Program-made: the position numbers and the translations under genes
Origin: Sordariomycetes sp. S80-01Y
Taxonomy: Eukaryota; Ascomycota; Sordariomycetes
Direction of reading: 5' to 3'
Length of the DNA stretch: 64,000 nt
Assembly: GCA_037042185.1 (NCBI GenBank)
Contig: JAXQJY010000031.1
Span: 310,001-374,000 of the forward strand
The notes under the pieces: model-generated
The model's input: the letters and a program-made list of their open reading frames with translations, nothing else
Databases searched by the model: none
What the model was told of the DNA's origin: nothing
Shown: one piece after another, positions 3,241 to 48,330 of the stretch
Layout of the letters: each line of letters starts with the position of its first letter
Numbering within the stretch: the stretch's first letter is position 1

Positions 3241-6200
3241 TTACTCCAAAGCCGGCGCAAGCTGTGCAACAACACTTGCCAAATGCTCGCCTAGAGCCAC
3301 CACTCGACTCTCAGAAATTGACGCCACGTCAAAAGTGAAAGACAGCAAAGCTTCATCATCAGAAAGCTGAGCTTGTAAAACAAGAGGATATGAGAAGAAG
3401 CCAGTATGATCACTGCCGGTGAAGTCCTCCTTCGAATTGTCCAGCTGCAAAACTGGCTGTGAACCGTCATCGCCCAGTGCCTCAAAGGCTGCGAAGGGCT
3501 GCACCACCAATAGAGAGTTGAAAGCGCAGGCATTCTTAGCGTCAGGACTCAGTCTTGCGATGTTTTGCAGACCGTACTGCTCATAGCCAATCATACGGTT
3601 CGCATCGTCCTGGACTCTTTGAAGGAATTCGGTTACGTTCTCGTCGCCGTCGACGGTGACCCGCACAGGCACCGTTGATACTGTAGCTCCAGCTACCCTG
3701 TCCAGCCCCAGCACCGGTGATTGACGCCCAGATAGGGTCATTCCGAAAGTGATGTCATCAGTCTCGGAGTATCTCGCAAGGACCAACGCCCAAGAGGCCC
3801 GTAGTATCGTCGCTTTTGTAATCGAACTGTCTGATTGCGGGAATGAGATCACCTTTTTGATCTCACGGGTGACTGGAGCGCTGCTTTGTGGTTTCGGAAA
3901 AGAGGCTTGCCGAGCGCCATGGAGCTCCTGCTGCCAATAAGCCTTGACGTCGGCCTCCTTCATGGACTGGATAAACTGAGCGAAGTGGCTGTAGGGAGTC
4001 AAAGCCGTTTCCTCGCCCATGTATGCCTTCAACAATGTGTCGGTGATTAGTCTCAAAGTCCATCCGTCGTAAATTGCGTGATGAACTACGAGGGCGAAGT
4101 AGTAGATGCCTTGGTCCGCGAAGACGGAGTATCTGCAGAGTCTAGTGTCGTACGTCATGGGCTGGCGGCGCTTGACGTCCTCAAAAGAGTCCCACTGGAT
4201 GTCATCCCGAACGACCACCTGAAGAGAAGCGTCCTGCACCCTAACGATACGGGTGCGCAGGTTTTCACACGTGACAAGAGTCCTCTCCCAGGCCGCCTTG
4301 AAGCGCACAATGTCGACTGAGTCGGAAAGGCGGAAGCAGATCTGTGCAGTGTAGCTGCCTGGCTGTTTTGTAGACAGTGACATAAGTCCGTCTTGGAAGG
4401 GAGAAACGGGATAGGCGTCTTCAAGGCGATCGTTAGGTAGTTTTAGATGCTCGAGCACACGTCCTTTGTCAACTGGGAGCAGGCTGAAAGGCGGCACTTC
4501 AAGGATCTCAGAAGGCCGCGTATAACACTTGAGCGCCATGTCGCACAGTCGCGGGTTGGTGAAAATCGTTGCGACGGACAATGAGAGTCCATAACTCTGG
4601 GCTAGCGATACCAGTCGAATGGCGCTCATCGAGTCACCACCAATTCGTAAGAAGTTGTCATTGCGTCCAGGGTTGACACTGAGAACCTCAAGCCATAGCT
4701 TAGCGAGTTTGATCTCCATGTCAGAAATAGGCGCTTCTTTGCTGCCTCCGCCAGGGGCAAACTTAACCCTCTCTTCGTGAGGCACCTCGCTCAGCAGTTG
4801 TCGTAGCTTGTGACGGTCAATTTTGCCGGATGTTGTCGTGTCTGGCCTTCCGTGGAAGACAAAGTACATCGAGGGAATCATGTAAGACGGCAGAACATCA
4901 CCAAGGTTGTTGTCGAGGTCGGAGATCAGGTCGTGTATCCCATCTTCCACCACTTCCACCAAGCGCAGCCCCCTCTCATCCGAGCTGGTGTTCCAGAGAA
5001 GTGCAATCAGAACTTTTCCGTCCTCACTATCCAAAGTTTCTGTCATACCGGCAACTCCATCCGGTACGAACTCCATCATTCGTTCCTCAATCTCGCCGAG
5101 CTCTACGCGCTGACCGTGCAGCTTGATTTGACTGTCCTTTCGACCAATGAAATCAAGTGTTCCATCCTCATTACGCCGAACCAGATCGCCTGATCTGTAG
5201 GCCGTGCCTCCGTACCAGTCGTCGATCCAGGATTCGGAGGGTCCATTGAGATAGCCGCGGGCCAGCAGAGGCCCTTGGATGACGAGCTCACCCACGCAGC
5301 CAACGGGTGTCAGCTGTGGAATGTTGTTAGGGTCAGCAACCTTAAAGTCAGACAATAAGGCCTTTCCGAGATTGGTTGGTTTGCCAGGAATGCCGCCAAT
5401 GTTTGCTCGCCAGGCACAGATAGATGCCTCAGCGGGACCGTATACGCTATCGATCTGGACGTGGTGTCTCCATTGGTCAATGACTTTGGTATTTATTGCC
5501 TCTCCACCCAACACCAGTCGGGTCAAGTCAGGTACGTCGGCAGGGCTGACCAAAGTCGCAAGTGACGGCGTGAGGAAAGCCCAGTTGGCTTGTGTTCTGC
5601 GAATGGCGCCGGCAACGTCGTTGTAACGCTCGTGATCGGATGGAATGCAAATGGTTGCGCCACGAGCAAGTGTAAATAGAACATCGTAGATACCAACGTC
5701 AAAGGTGTAAGCTGAGAAGCCAAATACGCGGGTGCCAGGTCCGATGCATTGAGCGTATTCAGCCTGGAGCGAAGAGCTCACGGAACGATGCTCTAGAATG
5801 ATCCCCTTGGGTACGCCTGTGCTTCCGGATGTGAATACGACCATGCTCGCATTGTCTGGCGTAACGGTGGAGGAGACTAGTCGAGGGGGATCTGGCAAGG
5901 ACTCAAGAACAGACTCGTCTATGGAGACTGTCTCGACATTCAGCGCCTCGACGGAGGCCACGCTGCTCGAGTGAGTGAGAACCAAGTTCGCGCGAGTCTC
6001 GTTGACAATTGTCTCAAGACGGGCTGAAGGAGCAGAAGGATCGAGCGCGACGAAGGCGCCACCCGCGAATTCTATCGCTACCAGAGCCACTGCTGCCCAG
6101 GCAGACTTGGGGAAGCAGAGCGGAACGATTACTTCAGGGCCAACACCCTGCTGTTGTAGCTTCCATGCCAGGCGCTGGACGTAGACGCTGAGCTGTTCAT

Positions 6201-6300
6201 AAGATAGCTCAGCGTCCCACGAGCAGACTGCAGTGGCAGATGGTCGGACGTCGATTTGTTCCTGGATAGACCAGTGGATGCAGGACTTGGTGGGTTGCAG
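3241..6300 (-). other. NRPS module 14 (A14-T14-C14), terminal
   Basis: Residues about 14010-15029. The A14 pocket code is DVYFVGVICK, the Pro-like subfamily with A3 and A7. T14 is IGGDS (near 4635). The enzyme ends in C14 with HHAIYDGW (4060-4083). In fungi a terminal C domain usually releases the product by cyclization or by transfer to an external nucleophile; no reductase or thioesterase follows. C14 resembles internal C7 and C11 rather than looking like a distinct terminal type, and keeps the full HHxxxDG. The protein stops at AQLAPALE, right where a C-to-A linker would begin. Confidence 0.88.
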
Positions 6301-9300
6301 ATGAGATTCTCGCATCATGGGGTCGTTGGGCCCGACGAGCGAGACGTCTCCAAGCAAAGCATCGGGCTTGCTCAAGAATTGCTGGACCACGAGCTCAAGC
6401 TGGTCGGCGATGGCGCGCACCAGCGGCTCGCTCAAGGAGTCCACGTGGTAGAAGAAGCGGACGTCGATATAATCACCCTGGTCCGTCGTAGTCAAGACTA
6501 GAGGATAGTTGAAGTAATTGCTCATCTCGGCTTCCGTCTTCCCATACTCTTCAGTGCCGTAGATAATGACAGCGTCGTCGCCGGCATCATCATGGTCGCC
6601 GAAGCGCTTTGGTTGGATAACCAGCAGCGTCTGAAATTGACTGGCCTCTTTGGCTGACGGTGAGACCTGTGAGATATTTTGCAGGCCAAACTGTTCATAG
6701 GCGATTGTTTCAGTAGCTTGACGCTGCACATCGTCCAAGAAGGTTGACACGGTTAACTGGGTATCGATCGGCACACGCACCGGAACGGTGGTGATCGCTG
6801 GTCCTGGCATATTGCTCAGCGCAGGAACCGGTGCGTTTCGGCCAGACATGGTTGCGCCGAAGATAGCTTCGTCAGTCTGATTATGGCGGGCCAAGACTAC
6901 GGCCCATGCGGCACGCAGCACTGAGGCGGTTGTAACAGAAGTGGTGTTTGAGAAGCCGATGTTTTTGTTCAGCACGCGGGACTTCGGCTCGATGATGTCC
7001 TTCCGGGAGGGCGGGAAAGTAGGCTTCGTGGCACCCTCGAGCTGGGCTCTCCAGAAGTTCTCTGCATCGCTGGTTGGGACGTTGAGCGTATACTGAACGA
7101 AGGAGGCGTAGTTGGCGAGGACTGGGGGCTCTCTGTTCCAGTAAATGGCTTGCAGTGTAGACATCATGACGCCGAGTGACCACCCATCCATGACGGAGTG
7201 GTGAATGCACAGGACGAAGTAGGTGTTCTTGTTGTCTTCAATGAGTGCGTAGCGTGACAGACGAGATCCATATGTCATTTCGAATGACTGCGTGTGTTGG
7301 ATGTAGTCGTCGAGGGGCTGTTGGCCTTCAGACTCCCAACGAATTTCGTCCCTAAGGACCACTTGAATCGGATTGTCTCTATTAGCCAGGATTCTTGTGC
7401 GAAGGTTATCACATCTGTTGAAGGTCTCTTCCCAGGCATCTTTGAAGCGAGCAGGGTCAATACTCGCAGGGATCCTGAAAAAGTATCGGGTGATGTAAGA
7501 TCCAGGCTGCTTGGCAGAGATGGCCATGAGACCAGCTTGCATAGGAGTGCAAGGATAAGCGTCAGAGAGGGAAAGGGACTTCTGCTGGTGTAGAGTGGCG
7601 ACCTGGTCATCGCTCAGAAGACTGAAAGGCGCAACGTTGACAACTTCCTCAGGCTGAGAATCTTCCACAGCGCAGGCCGCAACGGCACTCAGCTTTGCAT
7701 CTTTGAAGACATCCTGGACAGTTATGCGGATGCCTTGCGCGCGCGCGGCTTGCGTCAAATGGATTGTCGTTACGCTATCGCCGCCAATGCGAAGGAAGCT
7801 GTGATTGCGACCGATGGACTCCTCAGGTAGTCCGAGAATCTGTGCCCAGATTGATTGGAGCCTTTTCTCCATCTCAGTCTCGGGAGGTTTCGCATCATGC
7901 TCCTGTAGAGCATAGCTGGCTAACTCTTCCTGGCTGAGTTCAGCCGTCAGAGTCTGCAACAGCCTTCGGTCGAGTTTTGTCGAAGTGATGAAGGGCATCG
8001 AATTGCAAGGAATATAGAGGGAGGGCACCATGTACCGTGATAGTGACGAGCTCAGGTGCTCGGCTGCGTCAATGACCAAGTCCTTGACTGATTCCATGGG
8101 TAAGAAAAGATCTCCAGGACTGTTGAAATTGGCGCTCGACTTGCTCTCGTCGCTCGAAAAAAGGTACGCCACCAGCTGCGTGGCAGCGTCAGTTTTCAAA
8201 ACATCAACGGCTACCTGACGAACGCTTGGGAGAGCTTGACGCAGGTGGTGCTCGACCTCTCCAAGCTCGACGCGCAGTCCACGGATCTTGACTTGTGTGT
8301 CCTTGCGGCTGGAAAACTCCATGGTGCCGTCTTTGTTGTAATAGCAAAGGTCACCAGTCATATACAGACGATCCCATCCGTCCTCGGTCTGCTTTGGAAG
8401 CCATGATGGTAGATCACTCACTATGGCTTGCGCGGTTCGCTCAGGGCTGGCAAGGTACTCGCGCAGCATTGAGGGACCCTGAATAGCTACTTCGCCTAAT
8501 GTACCGCTGGGTGCGAGCTTGTGGGGGTTGCCTGGCTCGACAATCCAGCAGTGAGCGCCAACCGGGTACCCAACAGTCAGTGGGCTCTCGTCAATTGAGG
8601 CCCATTCGTAGAGACTGGTGATGCAGATAGTCTCAGCCGGGCCCCAGGCGTTAAATAGACGGACCTTGCCGAACCAAGTGTCAAGTAGATCGCGCGTGAC
8701 GGCTTCGCCTCCTAAGGCGAGAGTGTTGAGGCTGGGCACGCTTTCAGGTTGCAATGTCCTGGCAAAGGCTGGCGTCAAGAAGGCGACATTGACCTGTTTT
8801 TCACGGATGAAGGAGGAGATATTGTTCATGCGATCTGCCTCGGACGGTATGCACACGGCGGCTCCGTTCACCAAAGCACCGACAATTTCGCCAATCGAGA
8901 AATCGAAAACGAATGCTGCAAATTGCAGCATATTTACTCCCGGGCCGATGCCAAGGCGTCGTCCAGTGGCCAATTCGCTCGTCACAACGGCCCTGTGCTC
9001 GACCACTAGACCCTTTGGTGTCCCGGTGGACCCCGAGGTGAAGAGGATGTAAGCAGGACTAAGGGGGTCGACTTTCACGGCAACGCCATCTTTGGCGATC
9101 GTGCCGTCTTGTGCAAGGAGTGAATCCATTTCGGGGCTGACTTCGACAACTTGATCGACCAAACGGCTACATAATTCGATGTTTGTTGGCGACGCAAGAG
9201 CAACGGTAGCCTTCGTCTGTCCAACAAGTTGACGCAATCGCTGTTCGGGGTGAGAAGCATCGAGAGGGACCCATGCGGCTCCGACCTTATTGATGGCCAA

Positions 9301-12300
9301 GATGGCAACGACATGCCAAGCCGACTTTTCGAAGCAGACATGCACCAGATCACCAGCCTTGACACCGTGACGAGTCCCCAGCAGCGACGCAAGACGGTCA
9401 GCTGAACTGTTCAAGTCGGCATAGCTCAGCTCTGCGTCCCAGGCCCTGACAGCTGGAGAGTCCGGTGACTGGGCTGCAACCTTGGCTACCATCTCGTGCA
9501 CAGTGGACGAGACAATATCCGGCGTCTCTAAATTGCAGTTCGTGGCAATTTTCATATCCCAAGGGCCGCTGATTGACAGGTCTTTCAGAGGCTTCTCAGT
9601 AGGCTGGGAGAGCTGTCGGATAATGTGCTCCATCTGGTGAGCAAGAGCTTCGACTTGCGGCGCTGCCAGAGCTGCCGTATCGTAAGTAAAGTTGAGAAGC
9701 ATTTCGTCCCCTGTGAATGCTTGAAGTACAAGGGGCATATCAAAATAGCCCTCGGCATTGTGTCTCTCGTCCTCTGCCCCGAGGTCAACGAGAGACAAAA
9801 TGTTTTCTGCGTCTTCGCCCATTTGGGTCATCTTCTCATACGGCTGCACCACCAATAAGTTTGCAAAATTGCAGACCTCTTGGTGATCCGGTCCAAGCTT
9901 AGCGATATTCTGCAAGCCGTACTGCTCGAAGGGAATCATTTCGGACGCCTGGGTCTGGACAGCGTGGAGAAGATCTGCGATGGGCGTGTCTTGGTTCAGG
10001 GTAATCCGCACTGGCACGGTGGTGACTACCGGCCCAGCCATATCCTCAAGGCCGCGAACTGGCGCTTGACGACCTGAAACCGAAGTTGCGAAGCAGATGT
10101 CGTCCACATCGCAATAGCGCGCTAAGAGGATGGCCCAGGCGGTGCGAATCACAGTTGCTTGTGTGATGGAAGGGTTCGCCCAATCTGTGAGACTCAATTT
10201 GTGGCTCTTCATCTTCGACGCGCCCTTGTCCTTAGGCACAGATGGGAAGGCCGCCCGGCGGGCGTCGCGAAGCTGATTCGCCCAGTACTCAGCAGCCTCG
10301 TCGCCATTCGAGTCCTGAATGTGTTTGATGAAGTTCTCAAAGGGTCGAAGGCTTGGCAGCGTGAGCTTCCTGTAAGCAGCTGAGAGCACACTCATCAGAA
10401 TCCGGAGCGCCCATCCGTCATAAACGCTATGATGGACAACGAGGACGAAGAAGCTTTCACCCGAATCATTCTGCAATAAAGAGTAGCGGGCGAGCCGTGC
10501 TCCGTGGCCCATTTCGAAATCTCGAGCTCGGCGAAGGAATGTCTTGACGTCGGTCTCTTGTTCCCAGGCCACGTCGTTGTCAATGTGAAGCTGAAGTGCC
10601 TGTCCATCAATCGGGACAATTCTGGTGCGCATATTGCCGCACACTCTGACGGTCTCTTCCCACGCAGCCTTGAAGGCTGGAATGTTAACGTGGTTCTCGA
10701 TGCGGTAGGTCCATTTTGCGATGTAGGAGCCGCGCTGTTTGGCGCCGATTGCCATGAGACCTTCTTGAAGAGGAGTGCAAGGGAAGGCGTTTTCCACGCT
10801 TTGATCGCCAGATAGGCCGCATAGCTCGCGGATGTCAGGAGCAAGCACGGCGGCTTTGGTCTTTGAGCTGATGAGTTCGAATGGTCCAACATCCGTCTCG
10901 TCCTCATTTGCCTCCGTTGACACATCCCTAGCACGACTGGCTACAGCCTGGAGTCGTGGATCATCAAAGATATCCTTGACAGTGACGGAGATGCCAGCCT
11001 CTCGCGAAGCCTTGACAGTGTAAATGGCGAGAATTGAGTCACCGCCTGTACGCAGGAAGCTGTCATCTAGGCCAATTGTCTCCGCAGGGGTGTTCAACAC
11101 CTTGGACCAGACCTCCTGCAATCTCTTCTCCATGGAGGTTTGTGGCGCTCGCTTCTCTGAAGATGCAAGCAGATAATCGCCTAGATTGAGCTTGTCGACC
11201 ATAGCTTTCAGACTCTTCCGGTCTAACTTGGTGGACGTGATTGATGGCATGGCACTGCACGGAACAAAGTAGGCTGGCACCATGTACGAAGGTAGAGCCA
11301 CCGTCAGGGCACCAGAAACTTCGACCAGTTTTCTTCGAAGGTCAGATTCCAAAGGCATTGCAATCCCGCTCTCGGCGCTTTGTACGGTCTTGTGGTTGGT
11401 AGAGAAGCATGCCACGAGTGCAGACCCGATACTAGGCCGCTCGATGTGAATCACAGCCACATTCTTCGCTTCAGGCAAAGTCTGTCGGACGTGATGCTCA
11501 ACTTCTCCAAGCTCGACTCGGAGACCCCTGATTTTAATCTGATTGTCGATGCGCGAGCAGAACTCGATAGAACCATCAGATCTGTAGCGGCCTAGATCAC
11601 CAGATCTGTACAGGCGATTGTAGCCAGATCCGTTAGTGTAAGGCAGCCACTCGGGCAGGGGATGCACCATCGATGCTTCGGTTTTGGCCACGTCGCCGAG
11701 ATATTCGCGAAGGAGTGTCGGACCCTGAATTAGGATTTCGCCTGCAGTGCCTATCGGTGCCAGCTTCTGTGGGTCTTCCGGTGAAGCGATCCAGCAGAGC
11801 CCACCGACTGGCTTTCCAACAATCGAGGCTGTCTCGTTGGCTGATGGGTACTCCTGAATGGTACTGAAGACGACAGTCTCTGCAGGTCCCCAGCCGTTGC
11901 AAAGTCGGACGCTGTCAGCCCACGAGTGGACTATATCTTGCCCGACAGCCTCTCCCGCGAGAAGTAGCAAATCGAGAGCGGGGAGGTCTTTTGGCTGCAG
12001 TGTCCGTGCTAGGGATGGAGTCAAAAAACTCCAGTTGACCCTGGACTGATTCATGTACTCGACGAGACGGCTTACCCTGTCTTCAGGAGAGGGGACGTGA
12101 ATCGAGGCACCTGAGATCAGGGGCAGTACAATCTCGCCAATGGACAAGTCAAACACGAATGACGCAAATTGCAGCATCCTAACGTCAGGTGAGATTCCTA
12201 GCCTCTGCCCAATGTTGACTTGACTTGTAGTAAGGGACTTGTGAGTAATTACGAATCCCTTCGGGTTGCCGGTAGAGCCCGACGTGAAGATGATGTAGGC

Positions 12301-15300
12301 GGCTGTATCTGGGGAAGCAGACGACGCTGCATTCTTGACATCAGGATATCCCCAAGCAAGGTTGTCAATCAAGGTAGCCGTAACTTCAACGACGTCGGCA
12401 ACAAATCCAGCACACATTTGTGCCAAGTTCGGGGAGGTCAAAACGAGAGACCACTCAGTTTGTTGAGCGATCTGTTCCTGCCTGGATAAGGGATGTCCAG
12501 GATCCAGGGGCACCCATGTGGCAGAAGATTTGTTGATAGCCAAGATGGCTACAAAATACCAGAGGGACTTGTCGAAACAAACGGCAACAATATCCCCGCT
12601 AGCAACATTCTTATCATGGACGAGGTGATGCGACAGCCTGTTTGCGGCTTGGTTGAGTTGGTGGTAGCTCATTTCCCCGTCATGAGCGCTTATAGCCAAT
12701 GCATCGGGCTGTTCAACCGCGCGTTGGGCAAAGATCTCATGCCAACACTGTTCGATCTGCTCCGGGGGCTCGCCGTTCCAAGCAATGGCCTGCTGCAGAT
12801 CCCATTTCGAAGACACGGTGACATCTCGAAGTGCTGTTGTAGTTTTGGTCATCAACTCCCCAATGACAGTGTCAAAGTGCGCGCAAAGAGCTTCAACGTG
12901 TGTCTGAGAGATGCATGACTCGTCGAACGTGGCGAGAAGCTCGGTCTCAGTACTAGACACGTAAGACTGCACAACGAGGGGATAGTTGAAATAGCCCTCC
13001 AGAGACGGGGCATCGGCATCGTTGTCCTGTTTTAGCGGTTGTAAAACACCATCCTCTGTGACAGCATCCAGCGGCGAAAAAGGCTGGATCACGAGCAGGT
13101 TTCGGAAGGCGCAGCTATCCGGACTGATCTTGGCGATATTCTGCAGACCGTATTGTTCGTAAGCTGTCATCTCAGCGGCCTTGTTCTGAACGTGTTCAAG
13201 GAAGTCGATGATGGTTGTCTGGTCATCTATCTGCAGGCGGACGGGTACCGTGGCAATGGCAGCACCCGGGATGTCTTCGATCCCAAGGACAGGAGCCTGC
13301 CGACCTGACAAGGTGACACCGAAAGTCACGTCCCTTGTTTCACAGTAGGCAGCAAGTATGATAGCCCAAGCTGCGCGAATGATGGTAGCTCTCGTAATCG
13401 AGGACTCCGAAGCGTCTGGGAACTTGATGACGCGTGAGTAGTTGCGAGTGCGGGACTCAGGGGAAGCACCGTGACGCGTAGGTGGAAAATCGGCTGCCAT
13501 AGCGCCCTGCAGTTCATGAGACCAATAGTTCCGTATCTCAGTCTCGTTCATCTCCGTGATAAACTTGACAAAACTGACGTACGGCCTCAGAGCAGGCCCG
13601 GGAACATTATGGTATGCACTGAGAAGTGTTTTGATCATGAGATTGGTAGTCCACCCATCGAAAACGGCGTGGTGAAGGGAGATCCTGAAGTGATGCTGTC
13701 CCTTTTCTTCCGACAGGGCATATTGGCACAAGCGGGCGCCGTAGGTCATGGGATCTGCCGCAGAATCCCAAGACGCATCGTCTTTGAGAAGGACCTGGAG
13801 AGTGGTGCCATTGATGTTGATGATGCGAGTGCGGAGGTTGGTACAAAGCTGCATGGTCTTTTGCCAGGCAGTCTTGAATCTTGGAATATCCACGGCATCA
13901 GCCAGGCGGAATGCCAGATGGGCTGTGTAGGAGCCGGGGTTTTTGGCAGACAATGCCATCAATCCCTCCTGGAGAGCGGTAACTGGGTATATGTCCTCAA
14001 CTCGAGAATGATCCTGATCGCATTGATCTTTCGCTTCCGTCAGAGCAACACTGCGATCTAGCGGCAGGAGCTCAAAAGGTTCTGTGTCATAGTTTTCAAC
14101 TGTGGTGGTGTCGGACGCCAGGATAGCCATGTCGCTCAGACGAGGCTGAGCAAACACGTCCGCTGCTGTCAGACCAAGCCCGGCCTGGTTTGCCCTCGAT
14201 ACAAGGTGGATAGCAGAAATTGAATCGCCACCAATAGCAAAGAAGCTATTGTCCTTGCCAATGGACTGGCCATCTATTTCGAGTATTTCGGCCCAGATAC
14301 TCCGAAGACGATGTTCGTTTTCGGTCGTTGGCTCAGAGTCTTCTTGGTGCTCCAAGACAAATGAGCCAATCTGCTCAGTTGTGAGGTTTGCCATTAATGA
14401 CCTTAGGGCACCTCGATCAAGCTTGTGAGACGTGTTGAAGGGCATCGTCGACAGGGGTATCCAGTATGTGGGTACCATGTAGGTCGGAAGAGTCTTCTGC
14501 AGGTCTGCTGCGGCATGCGAAAACGAGTCTCTTATTTGTTTGGTCATCCCTAGCGCAAATGTTGGAAGTGCGCTTGTCGTCAGGGCTTTGAGACCGATAA
14601 ATGCAGTCAGCGTCTCTCTAGAGCCGACATTGATAACATCTGCTGCAACGTGCTGCGCTTCGTCGACAAGAGACTGTTGCATATTGTGCTCGATCTCGCC
14701 CAGCTCAACTCGGTAGCCGCGGATCTTGACCTGGGTGTCACGTCGACCTAGGAACTCGATGGTTCCATCTTCGTTGTACCTGCCAAGGTCTCCGGATCGA
14801 TGAAACTTGTTTTTTGAGGACGGCAAGAAGTCAACTTCCTGGATAAAGGCAGCCGAAGTTCTTTCGAGATCGTTGAGGTACTCGCGAGCCATGTTGCGCT
14901 CGATCAGTATCTCTCCCACAGCACCAATCGGGGCCAGGCGGTTGTAATCATCCAAGTCGACAATCCACATATTTCCGCTGAAGGCGTGCCCAATGTTGGT
15001 TGGCGAATCATCGCGAGACTGATACTCGTAGGAACCGATAAACACAGAAATCTCGGATGGGCCGTAAGCATTAATGAGCCTGACCCGGCCGAACCAACTC
15101 TCAAGGACCTTCTTGGTCGGCGGCTCGCCCACAAGGAGGAGCATCTCGAGATATGACAGCGTGGCGGGGTCGATGGTCTCGAGGAAAGATGAGGTTAGAA
15201 GGGCCGCCGTGACTCTGGCCTCATTCATAAAGTTGACGAGGCTACCGCCTAGTCGTTGCTCCTCGCTCGGCGTACAGATAGTCCCGCCGAAAACCAGAGT

Positions 15301-36300: not shown

Positions 36301-39300
36301 TCGGACTACCGCCTGACAAGCCATCCGATCCAGCTCGACGATGCGCGTGCGCAAGCTGTCTATGCTCGCGACGGTCTTTTCCCACGCAGATGTGAACCTC
36401 GACACGTCCACATCCTTGGACAGCTTGTACAAGCGCTGACCAATGTATGATCCGGGAGTTCTGGCACTCAAAGCCATCAACCCCTGCTGAAGAGACGAGC
36501 AGGGGAAGATGTCGTCAATGCTATCAGCGGGACCAAGCTCGCAGAGGCGACTGGCAAGCGGTATCTTGGCAGAACTATTCGAGATCATGCTGAAAGGCTC
36601 AACAGACTGCGAGAATGTCGTTCTCTTGGAAAAAACGGTGTTTTCTGCCATGCTCTTTAGATTAGGATTGCGGAAAATTGTCGAGATCGAAAGGTCGATC
36701 CCTTGGCCAGAACACAAAGTGACAAGCTTGATGGCGCTGATACTATCACCCCCAATCTCGAGGAACGAATCGTTTCTGCTGATATCCCTGGCCGGGACTT
36801 TAAGCAATTCCGCCCACATGTCGCGCAACTTGGTCTCCAATGGCGTCTGCGGCTCCTCTTTCTTTTCTTGACGCCCAAGACTAAGCTCAGAAAGGTCGGT
36901 GCGACCAGCTAGCTCAATCAAAGCCTTCCTATCGACCTTTTGGGAAGTATTGAAAGGCATATTCCGTAGAGGAAGACAAAGAGAGGGCACCATGTAACCG
37001 GGGAGCTTTGACTTGGTGTGGTCGATGATGGCTGACATGCGCTGCTTCACTTCGTCTGCAGGCTTGAGCAGTTCTTCGTCCTCCCTAGCCCATTTGGAGC
37101 CGTCGGAAAACGTAACGAAGGCCGAGAGTGCCTTTCCTGACTTTCGAGGTACGACTTCGACGGCCACATGGTCCACCGTCGGCATCGCCTTGCGAATGGT
37201 ATACTCGACCTCGCCCAACTCAATGCGTTGGCCTCGAATCTTGGCTTGCCTGTCCTTCCTTCCGAGGAACTCAATGGATCCATCGGGAAGATACCTCGCA
37301 AGATCGCCCGACTTATACATGCGCGGAGGCTTGAGGTTCGAGGTATTTTCCAACCAGCCATTTGCTTCAACAAAAGCTTCACTTGTCTTGGATTCGTCAT
37401 TGAGATAGCCTCTTGCCAAGGTGTGAGACTGAATGAGAAGTTCTCCGGTGCATCCAAAGGGCGCCAGTTTATGGTAATTGTTGGGGTCGACGATCCAGCA
37501 GTGACCGGTTGTGGGGCTTCCGAGATTGGTAGCCATGTCCTTCGAAGAGCTGTACTTGTGCACAAGCATGATGATGCAGCACTCGGCGGGAGCGTAGGTG
37601 TTATAAAGTCGGACATGCTCGAACCAAGTTTCAACAACTTCCTTCGTCGGTGCTTCGCCACCCAAAACAATGCTTTTTAGGGTGGGCACCTGGGAGGGCG
37701 TGAGTGTTTGCGTGAACGAAGGTGTCAAGCAAGCTGTGTTGATCGAAGCCTCATTGATGAACTGCGAAAGCTTTCCCAGGCGTTGTGTCTCATTTGGAAC
37801 GCAGACGGTTCCTCCAAAAATCAGCGTCCCGAGTATCTCAATGATGCTGACATCAAAGGTAAAGTTGGAGAACTGCAACGTGCGAGACGAAGGACTGAAG
37901 CCAAGTGCCGTCCCGTGACCCTTCAAACTCGTAGTTACAGCCAAATGTTCCATCGTAAACCCCTTGGGTGTACCAGTGGATCCAGATGTAAAGTGAATGT
38001 AAGCCGCATGCCTTGGCTCAACCTGGACTCGGAAAGGCTCGCCACAGGTCTCGCTCATGTTCGAAAAGAAGGATGCCGAAAGTTCCAGCTGACCTTCGAC
38101 AAGGCCCAAGCAGCTCTCGTGTGTCTCCGATGATGTGATCATGAATTTAGCACCTGTCTCGTGAACCAGCTTCTGGCGGCGGCTGAAGGGATGAGTCGGA
38201 TCCAGAGGTAGGAAGGCTGCTCCAGCTTTCATAACGCCAAGCATGGCAACTACCGTGTACGCTGACTTCTCGAAACACGTCGGCACAACTTCCTCTCGCG
38301 TAATACCCATTGACACAAGATACTTCGCAAGGTGGGAAGACATGGAGTCCAGCTGATCATACGTCAGGATGATGTCCGAAGAGAACACTGCCTCCTTGCT
38401 AGGCGTCTGAGAGGCCCGAGATGAGATCAGGTCGTGGAGACACGCATATTCGTACGGCGTTTCGTGTTGGTTGAGAGAACGCGCTTGCTCGAGGTCCCAC
38501 GGCCCGTCAACTCGGACATCGCTCAGTCGACCCTTCAGCTTTGACAATTCCTGAACAGTACGCTCGAAATGGTGGCCTAGTGCGTCCATTTGTCTCTGGT
38601 CTAAGATATCGGGTCGATAGGTGAAGATGACGTTGATAGCTCCGTTCTCCATGATGCAGTCAACCACCAATGGGTACGAGAAGAAGCCGTCCAAAGACTC
38701 CTCAATGTCAATGCTGGTAAGTAACTTCTCGCCATCAGCTTCGGCGGTGTAGATCTGCTTGGGCTGTACCACGAAGAGACTCGTACTGTTGCATGCATCT
38801 TTAGCTTCGGGCACTGCTTGAGCGATGTTCTGTATGCCGAATTGCTCGTAAGAAATCATGTCGGTTGCCTGCTTCTGCAGCATTTCCAAGTAGTCTAACA
38901 CAGACTGCGTGGGGTCAAGCCTGACGCGAATAGGTACAGTTGCAATGGCTGGCCCAACAATCTCACCAATGCCTTCTAAAGGTGCTTGTCGGCCGGAAAC
39001 TGTAGAGGCGAAGCTGATATCATCGGAATCGCTGTACTTTGCTAGTAGTATTGCCCAGGCGCCCCGGAGTAAGGTCGCCTGGGAGAGCGATCGATCAGCC
39101 TGCTGATTCAAGTTGATCATTCTCGTCATCTTTTCGGCTCGGACACGCTTCATCTCGGTATCCCGACTGGCAGGAGGAAAGGTTGCTGGCTTAGCACCCT
39201 CCATTTGCTGTCTCCAGAACGTGCTAGATTCGTTGACGTCTCTAGACAGCGCGTAGTGGACCAGGCTAGAAAATGGGTAGAGAGGCTCCGGAGTCTCGTC

Positions 39301-42300
39301 GTTATAGAAAGCGAGACACGTCTCGATGACAAGCCTAACAGACCATCCATCCGCAACTGAGTGATGGCACATCCAGACGAAGTAGGTGTCGTCGGGCTCG
39401 AAGATGAGTGCATAACGAGAGAGATGAGTGCAATAGCTCATATCGATATTCTTGGTCTTCTCAATGAAGGAGGACAGTGTCTTGTCCTGGGTGTCTTCCC
39501 ACTGAACTCCTTCCCGAAGCACTGCCTGCAACGTTAGGTCGCCTGACACAATGATGCGGGATCGCAGGTTGCTGCAGTGTGCAACTGTCTTCTCCCAAGC
39601 GTCTTTAAATCGATCCAAATCAATTCCAGGTGACAGCTTGTACACATGTTTCATAGTGTACGACCCGGGATGGCGGGCACTGAGAGCAATCAGGCCCTCT
39701 TGCAGGCTGATGGTTGGGTAGATGTCCTCGACATCGTCTCGTGAATCAATTTGGCACTTCTGTTGCACCTCGAACAGTATCCTCTCAGCTGAAGAAGGCG
39801 TCAACAGACTGAAAGGCTCCGGAACGCCTGATTCTTCGATTGTTGGGCTCTCAGATTCGACACGCTCTGCCATCTTCATCAGACTTCCAGCTTCGTTAAT
39901 GACGGCCACCGTAAGTCGAAGTCCACTTTTGCGGGAGAGATTGACGAGTTTGATAGCGGCTAGTGAGTCACCTCCATGACGCATAAAAGTGTCCTTCTTG
40001 CCAATGAGCTCTTCATCAATGCCTAGAACCTGGGCCCAGAGGCTTCTGAGTCTAAACTCTATATCAGTCGTTGGAGGCGTGCTCTCGATCGCATCGGGCG
40101 AGAACTGCGCCCACAGAGATTTCGAACTGGCGTGAGCAGCTTCGACCAAGCGCCTTTTATTGACCTTTCCGGACGTCGTGCGCCCTGGGCTTCCGTTGAA
40201 AACCAGGTAGCTCGTGGGTACCATGTATGCGGGCAACGCTTGGCTCAGCCCGCTGTCGAGCATGCCGATAAGGTCCTTGTGCTCCTCAGTTACATGGTCG
40301 ACAAGCCTAAGTTCGTCATCGGATTTTGCGGTGTTGTGCCAGAGAAGTGCCAACAGACGCTGAGACGTCCCATCCTCGCCCCCGAAAACGTCGACGACGG
40401 CATCCACATGCTCAGGGAGTTGTCCGCGAATGCAGGTCTCTATCTCTTCGAGCTCAACGCGCTGTCCGTGAAGTTTGATTTGACTGTCTTTCCGTCCAAC
40501 AAACTCAAAGGTGCCGTCCTCTTTGCGACAGACAAGGTCTCCGGTACGGTACGCTCGGCCAGATGAGGTCATCCAGCTGCTGTTCGTCAGCCAAGGTGAC
40601 TGGTCGCCATCAAGATATCCTCGAGCGAGTGTAGGGCCTTGAATTACCAACTCGCCTACACATCCAAGTGGAACCAGTTTGTCAGCATTGTCAGGCTCAA
40701 CTACCCAGAACGCGCTTGAGATAGGTATGCCAATGTTGTTGGCTGGGCCATCAATTCCGACGTCCGTCCGCCAGGCGCAAATTGATGCCTCGGCCGGTCC
40801 GTAGAGACCAAAAAGCTTCACATGGTCTTTCCACTTGGCTGTGGCTTTCTTCGTGACGACCTCGCCACCGAGGCCCAGTACCCTAAGGCCCGGGACCGTA
40901 AGAGGATCAAGCAGCGAAGCCACAGTAGGCGTCAAGAAGGCCCAGTTCGCATTCAAAGCATTTATTGCGCCATCAAGATCATTCTGGCGAGCTTCATCAG
41001 AAGGGATGCAGACACAAGCGCCACGCGAGAGCGGTACCAAGACATCCAAGATGCCGACATCGAATGTGCACGCGGAAAAGGCAAACACACGGCTGCCTGT
41101 GTCGATAAGGGTGCCATAACCATCGGAGGAAGAGCATACAGCCTGATGCTCTACAACCACGCCCTTGGGTTTGCCTGTGGTTCCCGACGTGAAAATGACA
41201 AAGCTGGGGTTTTCTGGTCGTGTGGCAGTTACAAGAGATTGTTTCGGATCAGGGAGGCTCTTCAACATCTCTTCCGTGACCGTCAAAGTCTTGACATTGA
41301 GGTCTTCGAGCTTGGAACGGCAGCCAGGGGCCACTAAAGCTATTCTCGCGCCGACCTCCTCAATGATGCCCGCCAGACGAGCGCTGGGCGCTGAAGGGTC
41401 TAGTGGAACAAAAGCACCACCCGCCCTTTGGACTGCGATCATGGATACCACAGCCCATGCAGATTTTGGAAAGCAAAAGGGTACAGTTGCCTCCGGGCCA
41501 ACGCCCAGAGTCTGAAGCTTAGCGGCGAGTCGAGTCGAGTAGATGCCTAGTTGCTCATAAGACAGCTCAGTCTCGAGGTCCCAAGCAGCTACGGCGGGGG
41601 AGGTAGGGTTCTCTCTGATGCGCTCATCAATCAACCAGTGAGTGCAAGACTCTGTCGGTGCTGTCAAGTTACTCGATCCTGCAGCCAGCTCGTAATCCCA
41701 AGAGTCCATAAGCGATAAGTCGCACAGCTTTGTTCCCTGGTTCTCCAAAAGCTGCTGAACAGCGTAGTCTAGGTGATGAGCCAGTGCTTCGACTTGCTTC
41801 TCCGAGAGGGCATCATTCTTGCGGAAGAATCGCACCTCAGCGTGATCTTCTTGGATCATGAACAGAAGAACCAATGGATAGTTGAAGTAGTTGCCCATCT
41901 GCTCCTCCGTCATATTGTATTCATCCTGCCCAAACACAATTACCGCGTCGTCACTGTCTTCGCCGTTCAAGTAAGAACGGGGCTGAATCACGATCAATGA
42001 GGACAAATCAGTGGCAGCTCTCGCGTCCGAGCTCAACTTGGCGATGTTCTGGAGACCCAGCTGCTCATACGCAACCATGTCCGACGCCTGCTGCTGTACC
42101 GTGTGGAGATAGTCTGAGATAAGGGTTTCTTTTTCGATCTGCACACGAACAGGAACTGCGGCAATTGCTAAGCCAGGCATGTTGTGCAGGTTGGGCAGAG
42201 GTGCATTCCGGCCAGAAACCGTGGCACCGAATGTCACATCTTCGGTATTGTTGTGACGAGCCAAGACAAGCGACCACGCCGCTCTGAGTACCGTAGCCTT

Positions 42301-45300
42301 CGTGCTCGAGGCATTGGTCAGGGTTGGCATATTGATACGTGCTGTGGTGATGGTCGTTTCACCTTCAGCACGCGGCGGAAATGCCATGCTTCTTGCACCT
42401 CGAAGTTGGTTCTTCCAATATGTTTTGCACTCTTCGCTCTGGATTTGCATACTGTACTTGACGAAGTTGACATATGGACTAATCGGCGGGGGCTCGAAGT
42501 TCCAGTAGAGGGCGGTGACGGTTTCTTCCACAACACGAAGCGACCAGCCGTCGAGGACCGTGTGATGGATCACCCATACGAAGTAACTGCCCCCCTCGGG
42601 CTGGGTGATGAGAGCGTAACGGCAGAGCCTAGAGCCGTAGGACATCTCATAGCTGTCAGTAACCTTGGTAAATTCGTTGACATCCATGTCGTTCGTTTCT
42701 TCCCAGGTTCCGGCGTCCTTGGTAATGAGCTGCACGGAATCATCATCGCTCATGATGATTCTGGTACGGAGATTGCCACAAAGCTGGATCGTTTTCTCCC
42801 ATGCGGCCTGGAACCGTGCCACGTCGATGCCACCGGGGATCTTGAAGAAATACTTGGTAGTATAGGATCCGGGCTGTTTTGCCGACAAGGACATCAACCC
42901 ATCCTGGAGCGGGGTGCAGGGGTAGGCATCTTCAATGTCATCCATGGCTAGACCAGTTTGTTTGCGAACAGTTTCTTCGAAGGCCTCGTCCCTGGGATTA
43001 AATTCGAGCAAGCTGAATGGCTTGATTTGGTCTCCCTCTTCTCCCATTTCATCTTGCTGCTGGGCTTTAGATGCAATAACAAACAGCCGCGGATCGTCAA
43101 AGATGTCCTTGACAGTCAAGGAGAGTCCCGCGGCGCGAGCATCTGCCACAAAGGATATCGCCATCACCGAGTCACCGCCTAGACGTAGGAATGAATCATC
43201 ACGTCCAATGGATTCTTTGGGTCGGTTCATAGTCTCTGCCCAAATCTCCTGGATCTGAAGCTCAACTGAGGTCTCCGGAGCGCGCTTCTCACCAGACTGC
43301 AGCGCATAAGCCTCCAAAGCCGCTGGACCCAGTCGAGAGGTCAGACCCAGCAGCGACCTGCGGTCCGTCTTAGTCGATGTGATTATGGGCATGAACTTGC
43401 AAGGTATGAAGATCCCAGGAATCATGTAATCGGGTAGCTTGACGCCAATCTCGCTGACCACAGCATGCAACTGCGCTTGCATCTCAGGACTGAGGGGGTC
43501 GAAGATATCACCGTCTTTGGTGCCGATCTCAGTGTCGTCGGTCTGGCAGAACCAAGTCACAAGCCGTGCGCCATCATCGCTTCTAAGGACGTCCACGACG
43601 ACCTGCTGAGCCATGGGCATGCTTGCGCGAATGTGATGCTCAATCTCACCAAGCTCGACGCGGAGTCCACGGATCTTCACCTGGCTGTCCTTGCGAAATC
43701 CGAATTCAATGGTTCCGTCAGGGTTGTAGGAGCACACATCGCCGGATTTGAAGAATCTTTGGAAAGCCCAAGAGCTTTCACCCGCCCATTCGGTGCAGGC
43801 CTCAATCTTAGCAGCGTTGGTTTTCTCGAGGTCACCTAGGTATTCACGCAGGATCGTCGGCCCTTGAATCATGACTTCGCCAAGAGTGCCGACCGGAGCC
43901 AGTTGATACGGGTTTTGGGGATCGGCTATCCAGCAAAAGGCACCTACAGGTGTGCCGACGTTCATGGGCGATTCTTCGGCCGAATCTTTCCACTCGTGGA
44001 GGGTGCTGAAGCAGCAGGTCTCTGCTGGACCCCAACCGTTCATCAAGCGCACCTTGCCGAACCATTGCTTGATGATATCACGGCTGGCAGCTTCACCAGT
44101 GAGGAGTAGAAGCTCAAGCGTCGGATAGTCTTCCGGCTTGAATAGTCGAGCTACCGAAGGGGTTAAGTAAGCCCAGTTCAGTTGCTTGTCGTTGATGAAG
44201 TCCTTGAGGTTGTTCATACGAATCTCATCCGAGGGTATGGCCAGGGATGCTCCGTGCAAAAGGGGTCCAAAGATCTCGCCAATTGACAAATCGAACACGA
44301 ATGCCGCGAATTGCAACATCCTCACGGCCGGTGTGAATTGCATTCTTTTGCCAATGGCAGTCTGGCTGGAACATACAGCTCTGTGGTCGATCACAAGACC
44401 CTTCGGTGTGCCTGTGCTGCCAGACGTAAATAACACGTAAGCTGGGTCGTGGCCAGAGACAGCAACGACCGGGCCAGAGCTCTCAATCTCCATTGCCATA
44501 ATGAGTAGTCGGTCTTCCAGGGTTTGAGAAACTTCCACTGCCCGCTGGACTAGTTTCTCGCATGCGGTAGTAGTGTTTGATGAAGTCAGCGCCAATGCTG
44601 CTCCAGTCTGCGACACGATCTGCGCGAGTCTCTGTGGAGGGTGCGAAGGGTCGAGTGGTACCCAGGCAGCCCCTGCCTTGTTGACAGCAAGAATGGCGAC
44701 AATGTACCAGGCACTCTTCTCAAAGCAGACGTGGACGAATTCCCCGACTTTCACGCCAAGGTCTTTCACTAGGTAGTTGGCCAAACGGTTGGCCATGGCA
44801 TCAAGCTCGCCATATGATAGATTGAGGTCCCACCCCAAGATAGCAGGTGCTGAGGGTTGTGTCTGAGCTTGCTTCTCGATAAGCGTGTGTAGACAGGTAT
44901 CGACAATATCCGGCGTCGTAGCGTTGAACTGTCTTTGACGCATCAGGTCGTCATCTCCGGCCATCTTCACCATGATCTCGCCAACTCCAGCCTCGGGGTT
45001 CTTCAAAAGCTGGTGGACGACATTTTCATAGTGCTTAGCCAACGGCTGGATTTCAGTTTCCGTCAAGACCGTTGGCTTGTAGGTCAAAACGAAGTTGACG
45101 GAATCTTCGTATACATATCCTTGAGCCACAAGCCCATAGTTGAAGAATCCTTCGGGTAGCTCCTCAGCAGGCTCGTCATGCACGTTACGCTGGCTCATGA
45201 CGTCTTCAGCGGAACCTGCCAGATACTTCATCGGCTGAACGACAAGCAGATTCGTGATATCGCAAGCAGCACGGGTCGCGTCGTTGATCTTGGCGATGTT

Positions 45301-48300
45301 CTGGAGACCAAATTGTTCGTATGGTACCATTTCAACAGCTTGCTCCTGAACACGTTCGAGGAGACTCGCAGCAGAGGATCCCGTATCCCAACACACGCGA
45401 ACCGGAACAGTTGCGGTCACCGCACCCGTCATGGTATCAAGACCGTTGACGGGCGCCTGCCTTCCACTGACAGTCGATCCAAACGTCACGTCACTCGAAT
45501 CTGTGTAGCGACCAAGCACCATAGCCCATGCTGTCCGCAGAACAGTGGCGATCGTTATAGATTGCGTAGTCCCTGATGTGGAAATACGCAAGCTGTAAGA
45601 TGTGCTTTCGTTACTTCGGGATGATCGCCTCGGGAACAGAGTCTGGCTCGCACCAGCAAGCTCAGACGACCAGTAGCTATGCATCTTCTGTTGGTCCAGC
45701 TCCATCGTGTACCGTATGAAGCGCTGATATGGGGCTGGCTGAACGTGAGACAGACCCCGATAACTGTCAGCCAGAATGGATCTCATTTCTCGCATGGTCC
45801 ATCCGTCATAAAGATCATGGTGTGCGGCGAGAACGAAGTAGCGCTCGCCATTGCTGTCATGAACCAGGCTATAGCGTATGAGCCGGGAGCCAAAGTGGAT
45901 AGGGGTGTTGTCCACAGCCTGGAGAAAGCTCTTCAAGTCCATCCCGTGGCTCGGTTCCCATGCAGAATCGTTATCGAGCACAACCTGAACCATAGTTCCT
46001 AGCAGGTTGACGATCCTGGTGCGCAGGTTCGCGCATGCTGCTACAGTGGTGTTCCAAGCTTGTTGGAACCTTTCCAAGTCGATGTCGGAGTTGAGACGGT
46101 AGATCCAGGTCGAAATGTAAGAGCCAGGCTCTTTGATCGCAAGTGCCATTAGACCCTCCTGAAACGCAGTACACGGGTAGGCGTCCACTATTGTCTGGTC
46201 CTCTGACAAGCCGCACTGCTGTCTGATGGTTGCACTGAGGATGTGTTGGCGCTTCGCCTCGTCCAGCAAGGAGAATGGCTCAATATCGTCCACAGCAGGG
46301 GCAGTTTCTTGGACAGAGGCAGCAATCTCAAAGAGGTGAGCACCGTCAAATATCCTCTTCACTGGGAGAACGATTCCTTCCCGCTGAGCAGTATTGGCGA
46401 GACGAATTGCCGCAATAGAATCTCCACCGGATTGTAAGAAGACATCGTCCCGGCCGATTGATTCGGGGGCTTTTCCCAGAATGTCAGCCCAAAGCTGCTG
46501 CATGCGCTCCTCCATCCGGGTCTCGGGCGCCCTCTTTTCGAGATTTTGAAGCGAGTATGCTGCGAGCTGGTCCTTGCTCAGTGCTTGGAGTCGTTTCTGG
46601 AGCGTCTTCCGGTCCAGCTTGGTAGATGATAGTACAGGCATTTTTCGAAGGGGAACAAAGATGGAGGGTATCATGTAGGATGGTACAAGTGCTGAAAGTT
46701 GGTCGATCGCCGTCGCCAAAGTCGATCGCTGATCGGAGTTGAGTGGAAGGAGTTCAAGATTGTCGTCACCATCAAGCTGGGTGGCATCAGTCAAACAAAA
46801 GTACAGCACAAGGCTGGCGGCGCGATCACAAGACTCGACCTTTCCCACTGCGACTTGACGTGCCTCCTTGAGTAAAGACCTGATGTGGTGCTCAATCTCC
46901 TCCAGTTCTATCCTCAGACCTCTGATCTTGATCTGAGTATCCTTTCTGCCGGAAAAGCTGATTGTGCCATCTGCATTGTAAGAGCCCAGATCACCAGTGC
47001 AGAAGATTCGGTCTCCCGACTTCAGCTCCGGTGCCCACGCAGGGAGCGTGTCCATGATAGTCCGTCTAGTTTTATCCTCATCTCCGAGGTATTCGCGGGT
47101 GATAGTTGGGCCTTGGATCAATATTTCGCCTTCCTCGCCGACCGGGACGAGCTGATCATGATTGTTGGGGTCTACGATCCAGCAAGATGCTCCAACAGGT
47201 CGTCCGACAGTCAGCGGGGAGTCGTTAACGGATGTGTACTCGTGTAAAGTGCTGACAACGCAGGTCTCCGCAGGTCCCCATCCGTTAACCAGTCTCAAAT
47301 TCCCATGCCATTCCTGGAGGATGTCTTTGCCGACTGCTTCGCCTGCTAGCAGCAATAGCTCAACATTTGGAAGATCCGATGGCCGCAGGGTGCGTGCGAA
47401 TGATGGCGTAAGAAAGAGCCTGGTAACTCGGGTCTCGTTGATGTAAGTTGTCAATCCCTGGAATCTTGTCTCTTCCGAAGGCATGCAAACACAGCCACCA
47501 AAAATCAAAGGCGGAATCACTTCCCCTATTGACATATCAAAGGTGAAGGAGGCAAAGCACAGTTGCCTGACATCTGGTCCAATTCCCAGTCTCCGACCAA
47601 TGGCGACTTGACTGGTGCAGACAGCTCCGTGTTCCATGACAAACCCCTTCGGAGTTCCTGTAGTTCCGCTGGTGAACAGAATGTACGCAGCGTTCCGGGG
47701 CCCAACTTCCGATGTCGGTTCGCAGTCTTTGTGGCTAGAGCCCAGCTCTAAATCCAGGTCGGACGATACTTCTATGACAGTAGCCTCCGGATCGATCGAG
47801 CCACAATGGCTGGCGGTTTTCGATGAAGCAAGAATTAACTTAGCCCGGGTCTGGGAGATAATTGACTGCTGGCGTTGGACCGGGTGTTGGGGATCGAGGG
47901 GTGACCAGACGCTGCCGGCTTTGTTCACGGCCAGAATGGCAACAACGTACCATGCTGACCTCTCAATGCAGACATGGATAATTTCTTCTGGCTTGGTATG
48001 GAAGCTTCGTTGAAGGTAGCTCGCCAGTCGGTTGGCGGCAGAGTCAAGCTCTCGATATGTGAATGTGCGGTCCCAAGCTTGGACAGCGATCGCGTCGGGG
48101 CGAAGTCGAGCCTGGTCTCGTATTAGGTGGTGAATGCATGATTCGATAATCTCGGGGTAGTAGTCGTCGTTCCATCGCGTAGCCTGTGTTAGTATAGAGT
48201 CGTCATATTCGCTGTCTTTCGCTTCGTAGATCTTGTGGTCGCTTTCGAAGTCGTCGTCAGCGCAGTGGTCGTGGGGCTTCCCATGGCTGTCCGCAACAGC

Positions 48301-48330: not shown

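What the first reader, a model, noticed from the sequence alone, without database searches (positions are those of the whole stretch)
3241..48330. 45-kb intronless NRPS with a pure (A-T-C)x14 layout and no loading, epimerization, methylation or release domain other than C
A single 15,029-codon frame encodes 14 complete modules, starting with a bare A and ending in a C domain. All 14 HHxxxDG motifs and all 14 carrier serines are intact, so it looks functional. I know of no fungal 14-module NRPS with this exact layout: cyclosporin synthetase has methylation domains, and peptaibol synthetases have KS-AT loading and a terminal reductase. It may make an undescribed 14-residue peptide.
Basis: partly seen in the sequence, partly recalled or inferred. 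Interest (0 to 1): 0.9.

Follow-up and report, generated by a model that had tools for sequence, protein, structure and literature searches.

The report
Fourteen-module peptaibol-like peptide synthetase
A fungus carries one intact 45-kb gene for a giant enzyme that should join fourteen amino acids, many of them probably the unusual building blocks of peptaibol antibiotics, and because it lacks the usual caps at both ends it may close the chain into a ring of a size rarely seen in fungi.

Summary
ORF 3241-48330 (-) is one open frame of 15,029 codons with 14 A, 14 T and 14 C domains and no room for another domain. One correction: T7 lacks a conserved glycine (GDS, not GGDS). The layout, A-T-(C-A-T)x13-C, is ordinary fungal grammar; a last C domain is the usual fungal release position. 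What stands out was not in the finding. First, the pocket codes are peptaibol-type: 8 of 14 match a published table of peptaibol codes at 6 or more of 8 positions (Aib-like at modules 1, 2, 6, 9, 12; Ile/Iva-like at 13; Pro-like at 3 and 7, with 14 weaker), against at most 4 of 8 for six control codes. Second, both peptaibol caps are absent: no KS-AT loading, no reductase. Third, C-domain kinship follows the class of the next A domain, and the terminal C sits among domains that accept Aib-class residues, the class of module 1. Best reading: an orphan peptaibiotic-type synthetase that closes a 14-residue Aib/Pro-rich chain head to tail. Cyclisation is inferred, not shown; the terminal C looks like an ordinary elongation C domain.

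The parts
3241..48330 (-). NRPS gene, single open frame, 15,029 codons, A-T-(C-A-T)x13-C
44998..48144 (-). Module 1 (A1 T1 C1); pocket DMGFLAGVVK, 7/8 to an Aib code; class b; no loading domain in front
41740..44901 (-). Module 2; DLGYLTGCFK, 6/8 to an Aib code; class b
38539..41652 (-). Module 3; DVLFGGLICK, 7/8 to the Pro code; class a
35326..38445 (-). Module 4; DVICVGTIIK, unassigned (4/8); class c
32149..35238 (-). Module 5; DAWMVVGIIK, unassigned (4/8); class c
28900..32055 (-). Module 6; DMGYLAGCCK, 6/8 to an Aib code; class b
25696..28812 (-). Module 7; DVMFAGLICK, 6/8 to the Pro code; class a
27010..27216 (-). T7 carrier domain lacking one Gly of the GGDS motif (FLRIGDSM)
22486..25608 (-). 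Module 8; DMGMLGGFVK, weak (5/8, nearest is a Gln code although the domain is class b)
19225..22389 (-). Module 9; DLGYLAGCFK, 7/8 to an Aib code; class b
16009..19131 (-). Module 10; DVNFLVAMHK, unassigned (4/8); class c
12844..15912 (-). Module 11; DVSLLVAVFK, weak (5/8, tie between Gly and Iva/Ile codes); class c
9604..12753 (-). Module 12; DLGFLAGVFK, 8/8 to an Aib code; class b
6367..9507 (-). Module 13; DFGFAGACIK, 6/8 to an Ile/Iva code; class b
3256..6285 (-). Module 14; DVYFVGVICK, 5/8 to the Pro code; class a
3244..4533 (-). Terminal condensation domain C14 with its leading linker, the only candidate release domain in the protein; HHAIYDG
50098..51770 (+). Cytochrome P450 gene with likely introns, transcribed away from the NRPS; candidate tailoring gene (start and exon boundaries read by eye)

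Best explanation
This is a fungal 14-module non-ribosomal peptide synthetase of peptaibiotic type. Shown: the architecture, the intact motifs, the three A-domain classes and the closeness of most pocket codes to peptaibol codes. Inferred: A1 loads an Aib-like residue with a free amine, because no KS-AT acylation domain precedes it. Modules 2-14 add residues in order, giving roughly Aib - Aib/Iva - Pro - x - x - Aib - Pro - x - Aib - x - x - Aib - Iva/Ile - Pro. C14 then joins the carboxyl of residue 14, held on T14, to the free amine of residue 1, releasing a head-to-tail cyclic tetradecapeptide. The divergent P450 may oxidise it.
For: Codes: 8 of 14 match one of 17 published peptaibol codes at 6 or more of 8 positions; six control codes reach at most 4, and 0 of 5000 within-column shuffles reach 8 such matches. 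Three A classes, supports 94/92 to 100/100, parallel the three published peptaibol A-domain clades (Aib and small or branched residues; Val/Gln/Asn/Leu/Ile; Pro on a long branch; PMC4517408, one section read). No KS-AT or reductase by Pfam in the protein, in six frames of 48331-61832 with stops as X (only the P450 at E up to 0.01), or in the three minus-strand frames of about 1081-3242 just downstream (no match). All 42 A, T and C domains searched against both flanks give nothing better than E 0.029. C-domain kinship follows acceptor class: 3 changes, reached by 4 of 2000 shuffles, against donor class 5 changes, reached by 980 of 2000. C14 groups with C7 and C11 (98/98), both of which feed class b modules; setting its acceptor to b costs 3 changes, to a or c 4; module 1 is class b. 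C14 has an unremarkable end branch (0.58; median 0.84).
Against: C14 shows no CT signature. It scores no higher to the TqaA CT domain (44.7 bits at best) than internal C1 does (47.2), keeps the first His that the terminal C of another fungal synthetase has lost, and its model matches other C domains ahead of TqaA CT, as internal C11 does (CT first at rank 8 and 10). C_i and A_(i+1) are neighbours, so the acceptor pattern may record co-duplication rather than function; C14 could be the stump of a longer line. Five modules (4, 5, 8, 10, 11) have no confident substrate, class b module 8 is nearest to a Gln code, A14 is only 5/8 to Pro, and Ala codes are second best for A3 and A7 (6/8, 5/8). No peptaibol synthetase sequence was available for a tree. 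T7 lacks a Gly.
Confidence: 0.5

Rival explanations
1. Split or truncated assembly line: the gene is the upstream part of a longer peptaibiotic synthetase, and C14 condenses the 14-mer with a residue carried by a second protein encoded elsewhere.
For: C14 looks like an internal C domain in sequence, tree position and fold. A split peptaibol synthetase is described in Tolypocladium, 8 + 13 modules (review PMC11610996, passages).
Against: C14 ends cleanly, 4 aa after the domain. The described split carries KS-AT at its front; this gene has none. No A, T or C remnant in either flank (best E 0.029 over 42 queries). No second NRPS was found in the window; the rest of the genome is not held.
Confidence: 0.2
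2. Linear release: C14 or a free-standing enzyme releases a linear 14-mer to an amine or alcohol, or to water, giving a linear peptaibiotic with an unusual C-terminus.
For: Peptaibols are linear (abstract of PMC11610996, listing), and Tolypocladium efrapeptins carry a C-terminal blocking group (PMC4517408, passages).
Against: No reductase or thioesterase matched by Pfam in the protein or in the flanking frames scanned. Leucinostatin synthetase, whose product ends in an amine, ends in an NAD(P)H-dependent reductase (PMC4946873, passages). No N-terminal capping domain, unlike peptaibol synthetases.
Confidence: 0.2
3. A carrier defect: T7, short of one Gly, is poorly loaded, so the line is inactive, or module 7 is skipped and a 13-mer results.
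For: T7 is the only one of 14 T domains without GGDS and has the lowest score of the 14 to the self-made T profile. Module skipping is described for a 14-module peptaibol synthetase (review PMC11610996, passages).
Against: The serine is present, T7 passes the Pfam cut-off (39.3 against 20.8 bits; T14, with GGDS, scores 38.5), and no stop or frameshift interrupts the 15,029 codons.
Confidence: 0.1

Closest known systems
14-module peptaibol synthetases of Trichoderma (tex2 type)
   Same: Module count; three A-domain classes; Aib and Pro pocket codes; a class b module before each class a module (3 of 3; also in 9.7% of shuffles), as the T. endophyticum line has Aib 4, 8, 12 before Pro 5, 9, 13 (PMC9961477, passages)
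   Different: No KS-AT loading region, no terminal reductase; class a at modules 3, 7, 14 instead of 5, 9, 13; ends in a C domain
Leucinostatin synthetase LcsA (PMC4946873, passages)
   Same: Large synthetase whose A domains fall in the peptaibiotic clade and include Aib modules
   Different: LcsA is PCP-(C-A-PCP)x10-NAD with separate PKS and acyl ligase; here 14 modules, no leading PCP, no reductase
Cyclosporin synthetase SimA (PMC3688495, passages)
   Same: 45.8-kb single locus; terminal C held responsible for cyclisation (PMC3672099, passages)
   Different: 11 modules with methylation domains; its A domains form a clade apart from tex1/peptaibols in that paper
Fungal CT domains (TqaA, PDB 5dij and 5ejd)
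   Same: Position at the end of the line; same overall fold
   Different: C14 is no closer to TqaA CT than internal C1 is by sequence, ranks it about as C11 does by fold, and keeps both His
Verrucamides A-D, the only fungal cyclic tetradecapeptides in a 2017 review (PMC6150023, passages)
   Same: Ring size predicted here
   Different: Verrucamides are N-methylated with two D residues (PMC9258550, passages); this line has no methylation or separate epimerisation domain

Membership tests
Fungal multimodular NRPS | A-T-C modules in one protein with intact core motifs | tested here: met
   14 A, 14 T, 14 C in order; HHxxxDG 14/14; carrier Ser 14/14, one T without the second Gly
Peptaibol synthetase | KS-AT-ACP loading region at the N-terminus | tested here: not met
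   62 aa before A1; no Pfam match there nor, at E up to 0.01, in six frames of 48331-61832 apart from the P450
Peptaibol synthetase | C-terminal NAD(P)H reductase | tested here: not met
   Protein ends 4 aa after C14; no Pfam match in three minus-strand frames of about 1081-3242
Peptaibol synthetase | Aib/Iva and Pro pocket codes | tested here: met
   8 of 14 at 6/8 or better to a published peptaibol table; six controls at most 4/8
[quoted passage not shown]
   No peptaibol synthetase sequence was at hand; three internal classes of parallel kind only
Peptaibol synthetase | Linear product, acylated, with a C-terminal amino alcohol | not testable with these tools
   Needs chemistry; the domains for both caps are absent
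Fungal cyclising synthetase with CT | C-family domain as the last domain | tested here: met
   C14 at 3256-4437
Fungal cyclising synthetase with CT | Last C domain closer to known CT domains than internal C domains are | tested here: not met
   TqaA best bits 44.7 (C14) against 47.2 (C1); Foldseek puts other C domains first for C14 and C11 alike. One CT family (TqaA) and two internal domains compared
Fungal cyclising synthetase with CT | Release by intramolecular attack | not testable with these tools
   Inferred only from missing caps and the acceptor class of C14
Cyclosporin-type synthetase | Methylation domains inserted in A domains | tested here: not met
   A domains are 511-539 aa, aligned without a large insert

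The most novel reading that the evidence does not exclude
A peptaibol-type assembly line has lost both end caps and become a macrocyclase: it makes a head-to-tail cyclic Aib/Pro-rich tetradecapeptide, a large cyclopeptaibiotic, closed by a terminal C domain recruited from an ordinary elongation C domain with acceptor preference for Aib-class residues, not from the known CT lineage.
Probability: 0.38. Interest if true: 0.72.

Novelty: new variant of a known kind. Interest (0 to 1): 0.52.

Why it matters
Linear peptaibols are among the best-known fungal membrane-active peptides. A synthetase with peptaibol-type pockets but neither end cap would show that such lines can be rewired to make rings, and a 14-residue Aib/Pro ring should be rigid and protease-resistant. 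It would also make testable where fungal terminal cyclisation domains come from: here the candidate looks like an ordinary elongation domain, and its kin predict which residue it accepts. If cyclisation fails, the gene is still an intact orphan line with a partly readable product.

Tried and rejected
Considered and rejected: (1) chimeric or collapsed assembly: no exact direct repeat of 24 bases or more in the ORF, GC3 0.575-0.616 across the 14 modules. (2) Bacterial origin or recent transfer: a pattern-filtered search with the seven class b A domains returned 32 prokaryote loci at only 26-32% identity; an earlier single-protein search gave nothing in viral or genome contigs. These collections are of viruses and prokaryotes, so no nearest fungal relative could be named. 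(3) Class a as Trp or Ala: I first weighed Trp from recalled codes; the published table puts A3 and A7 nearest to Pro (7/8, 6/8) with Ala next (6/8, 5/8), so Ala remains possible. (4) Missing end domains hidden in the flanks: not found (the stretch 61833-64000 was scanned only as selected frames). (5) Efrapeptin: set aside because its pipecolic acid positions, recalled, do not fit class a at 3, 7, 14; no efrapeptin synthetase sequence was at hand. (6) Verrucamide synthetase: set aside for the lack of methylation domains. NCBIfam only repeated the NRPS call and showed 25 of 105-108 families per large piece, so it does not test for epimerisation domains; their absence rests on spacing and on one C per T.

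Led nowhere: text search for contiguous codes (0 papers); no pocket table in the passages seen of PMC3672099, PMC10512319 and PMC4977696. Literature novelty rests only (open-access library): none of the titles and abstract starts listed describes a cyclic peptaibiotic larger than a tetrapeptide; cyclic peptaibiotics are named as a group in one passage (PMC8512731), and the 2008 review on cyclopeptaibiotics and cyclic tetrapeptides was seen as a reference title only. I read no paper whole.

Rows dropped before counts: three codes of the published table with a blank last position were left out; of the eight rafflesfungin codes five distinct ones served as controls (two duplicates dropped, one cut off in the passage). 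A first flank search printed only 20 rows; one search repeated it in full (42 queries, 23 rows). Searches left 229 residues inside A10 unscanned; one search filled them.

Full report
Observation. The window holds one open frame on the minus strand, 48330 down to 3241, of 15,029 codons. Pfam on pieces that together cover the protein reports only AMP-binding, PP-binding and Condensation above cut-off. Profiles seeded with the protein's own first module and iterated find 14 A, 14 T and 14 C domains in strict A-T-C order. Gaps between domains are 4-36 residues, with 62 residues before A1 and 4 after C14. There is no room for methylation, reductase or thioesterase domains. All 14 C domains have HHxxxDG and all 14 carriers the serine, but T7 reads FLRIGDSM where the other 13 have GGDS. 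It still scores 39.3 bits to PP-binding, cut-off 20.8, close to T14 at 38.5.

Is the layout special? Written from the start, A-T-C repeated 14 times is A1-T1 followed by thirteen C-A-T modules and a last C. That is standard fungal grammar: five of the six modules of pneumocandin synthetase are A-T-C and its last C is proposed to cyclise (PMC3672099, passages), and fungal lines typically end in CT (PMC6518819, passages). Fourteen-module fungal synthetases are known as peptaibol synthetases (PMC9961477, passages; PMC11610996, passages; PMC6606783, section 14). So the layout alone is not novel.

A domains. The positions that line the pocket were mapped by aligning the 14 A domains to GrsA residues 234-528, checked against PDB 1amu. 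The A domains form three classes: a = 3, 7, 14 (100/100); b = 1, 2, 6, 8, 9, 12, 13 (100/99); c = 4, 5, 10, 11 (94/92). Table 5 of PMC6606783 lists eight-letter codes of four 20-module peptaibol synthetases with the residues detected in the peptaibols. Against its 17 distinct ungapped codes, module 12 is identical to an Aib code; 1 and 9 match Aib codes at 7 of 8, and 2 and 6 at 6 of 8; 13 matches an Ile/Iva code at 6 of 8; 3 and 7 match the Pro code at 7 and 6 of 8 (Ala next, 6 and 5); 14 matches the Pro code at 5. Modules 8 (nearest Gln) and 11 reach 5; modules 4, 5 and 10 only 4. In all, 8 of 14 reach 6 or more. Five rafflesfungin codes and GrsA reach 3-4, and 0 of 5000 within-column shuffles give 8 such matches (mean 2.9). 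[quoted passage not shown] Val, Gln, Asn, Leu, Ile; and Pro on a long branch (section 9 read). The reference table covers one Trichoderma clade only, and no peptaibol synthetase sequence was available, so common descent is not tested.

Predicted order: Aib - Aib/Iva - Pro - x - x - Aib - Pro - x - Aib - x - x - Aib - Iva/Ile - Pro. Every class a module follows a class b module (3 of 3); 9.7% of shuffles do as well, so this is suggestive only.

End caps. The first peptaibol synthetase, Tex1, starts with KS-AT-ACP, inferred to acylate the N-terminus, and ends in a reductase (PMC11610996, passages). Neither is in the protein. Pfam at E up to 0.01 on all six frames of 48331-61832, with stops as X, found only the P450, and on the three minus-strand frames of about 1081-3242, just downstream of the gene, found nothing. 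Twenty-six selected flanking frames gave WD40, P450 and weak, below-cut-off zinc-finger matches and, at a laxer cut-off, one chance-level match. All 42 A, T and C domains searched against both flanks gave nothing better than E 0.029. A line that leaves both ends uncapped suggests, by inference, that the ends are joined to each other.

C domains. On a tree of the 14 C domains, labels by the class of the next A domain (acceptor) need 3 changes, reached by 4 of 2000 shuffles; labels by the preceding A domain (donor) need 5, reached by 980 of 2000. The backbone of the tree is weak (6 of 11 inner forks open); the groups C2-C6-C13 (100/99), C9-C10 (100/98) and C7-C11-C14 (98/98) are firm. C7 and C11 feed class b modules, and C14 is cheapest with acceptor b (3 changes, against 4 for a or c). 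Module 1 is class b. That fits closure onto residue 1, but equally a line that once went on to a class b module 15, since each C domain is physically joined to the next A domain and the two may be copied together.

Is C14 a CT domain? By position yes, by kinship no. Against PDB sequences C14 reaches 44.7 bits to TqaA CT and the internal C1 47.2; both have bacterial C domains on top. AlphaFold2 models of C14 (pLDDT 84.0) and C11 (85.1) match other C-domain structures first; TqaA CT enters at rank 8 for C14 and rank 10 for C11, with TM-scores by query length of about 0.66 and 0.69. So if C14 cyclises, it does so as an ordinary C domain put to that use. Its end branch is short (0.58; median 0.84), so it shows no sign of decay. 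Only one CT family was available for comparison.

Surroundings. Left (1-3013, +) is a WD40-repeat gene whose upstream frame ends in a stretch that I read, from recall, as the end of a fungal NACHT-WD40 protein (Pfam confirms only WD40). Right is a P450 transcribed away from the NRPS, an unknown 271-aa ORF, and a C2H2 zinc-finger ORF (matches below the Pfam cut-offs) that I take, from recall, for an SFP1-like regulator. No transporter, ligase or PKS was recognised by the Pfam scans made. No tRNA and no Rfam match. No host genome is held; fungal origin rests on the gene structures and layout, not on a database match. Class b A domains have prokaryote relatives at 26-32% identity in the 32 loci found.

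Known products. A 2017 review lists verrucamides A-D as the only fungal cyclic tetradecapeptides (PMC6150023, passages); they are N-methylated and contain two D residues (PMC9258550, passages), which this line is not equipped to make by itself. Searches for cyclic peptaibiotics and for 14-module cyclising synthetases showed no such system in the listings; one passage names cyclic peptaibiotics as a group (PMC8512731), and a reference title couples cyclopeptaibiotics with cyclic tetrapeptides.

Verdict. Real, intact and mostly ordinary in layout, but with peptaibol-type pockets and neither peptaibol cap: a new variant of a known kind. Head-to-tail closure is the likeliest fate of the chain (about 0.5), ahead of a split line (0.2), linear release by a partner (0.2) and a carrier defect (0.1).

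Noticed in passing
window 27010-27216 (-): T7 carrier domain lacks one Gly of GGDS, the only such case among 14; could favour skipping of module 7.
   Followed up: partly
window 1-3013 (+): WD40-repeat gene, frame 518-3013, preceded in another frame by what looks (recalled) like the end of a NACHT NTPase domain; possibly a fungal NLR-type gene cut by the window edge.
   Followed up: partly
window 50098-51770 (+): Cytochrome P450 with two likely short introns, start about 1.8 kb from the NRPS start and transcribed away from it.
   Followed up: partly
window 51979-52794 (-): 271-aa ORF without any Pfam match beside the P450; may be a cluster gene.
   Followed up: no
window 60260-62128 (+): C2H2 zinc-finger ORF (below Pfam cut-offs) in a G+C-richer stretch (about 60%), perhaps the housekeeping border of the cluster (SFP1-like by recall).
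   Followed up: partly
window 3241-48330 (-), C2, C6, C13: The three C domains that feed the Pro-type modules 3, 7 and 14 form a tight group (100/99), suggesting copying of C-A units.
   Followed up: yes
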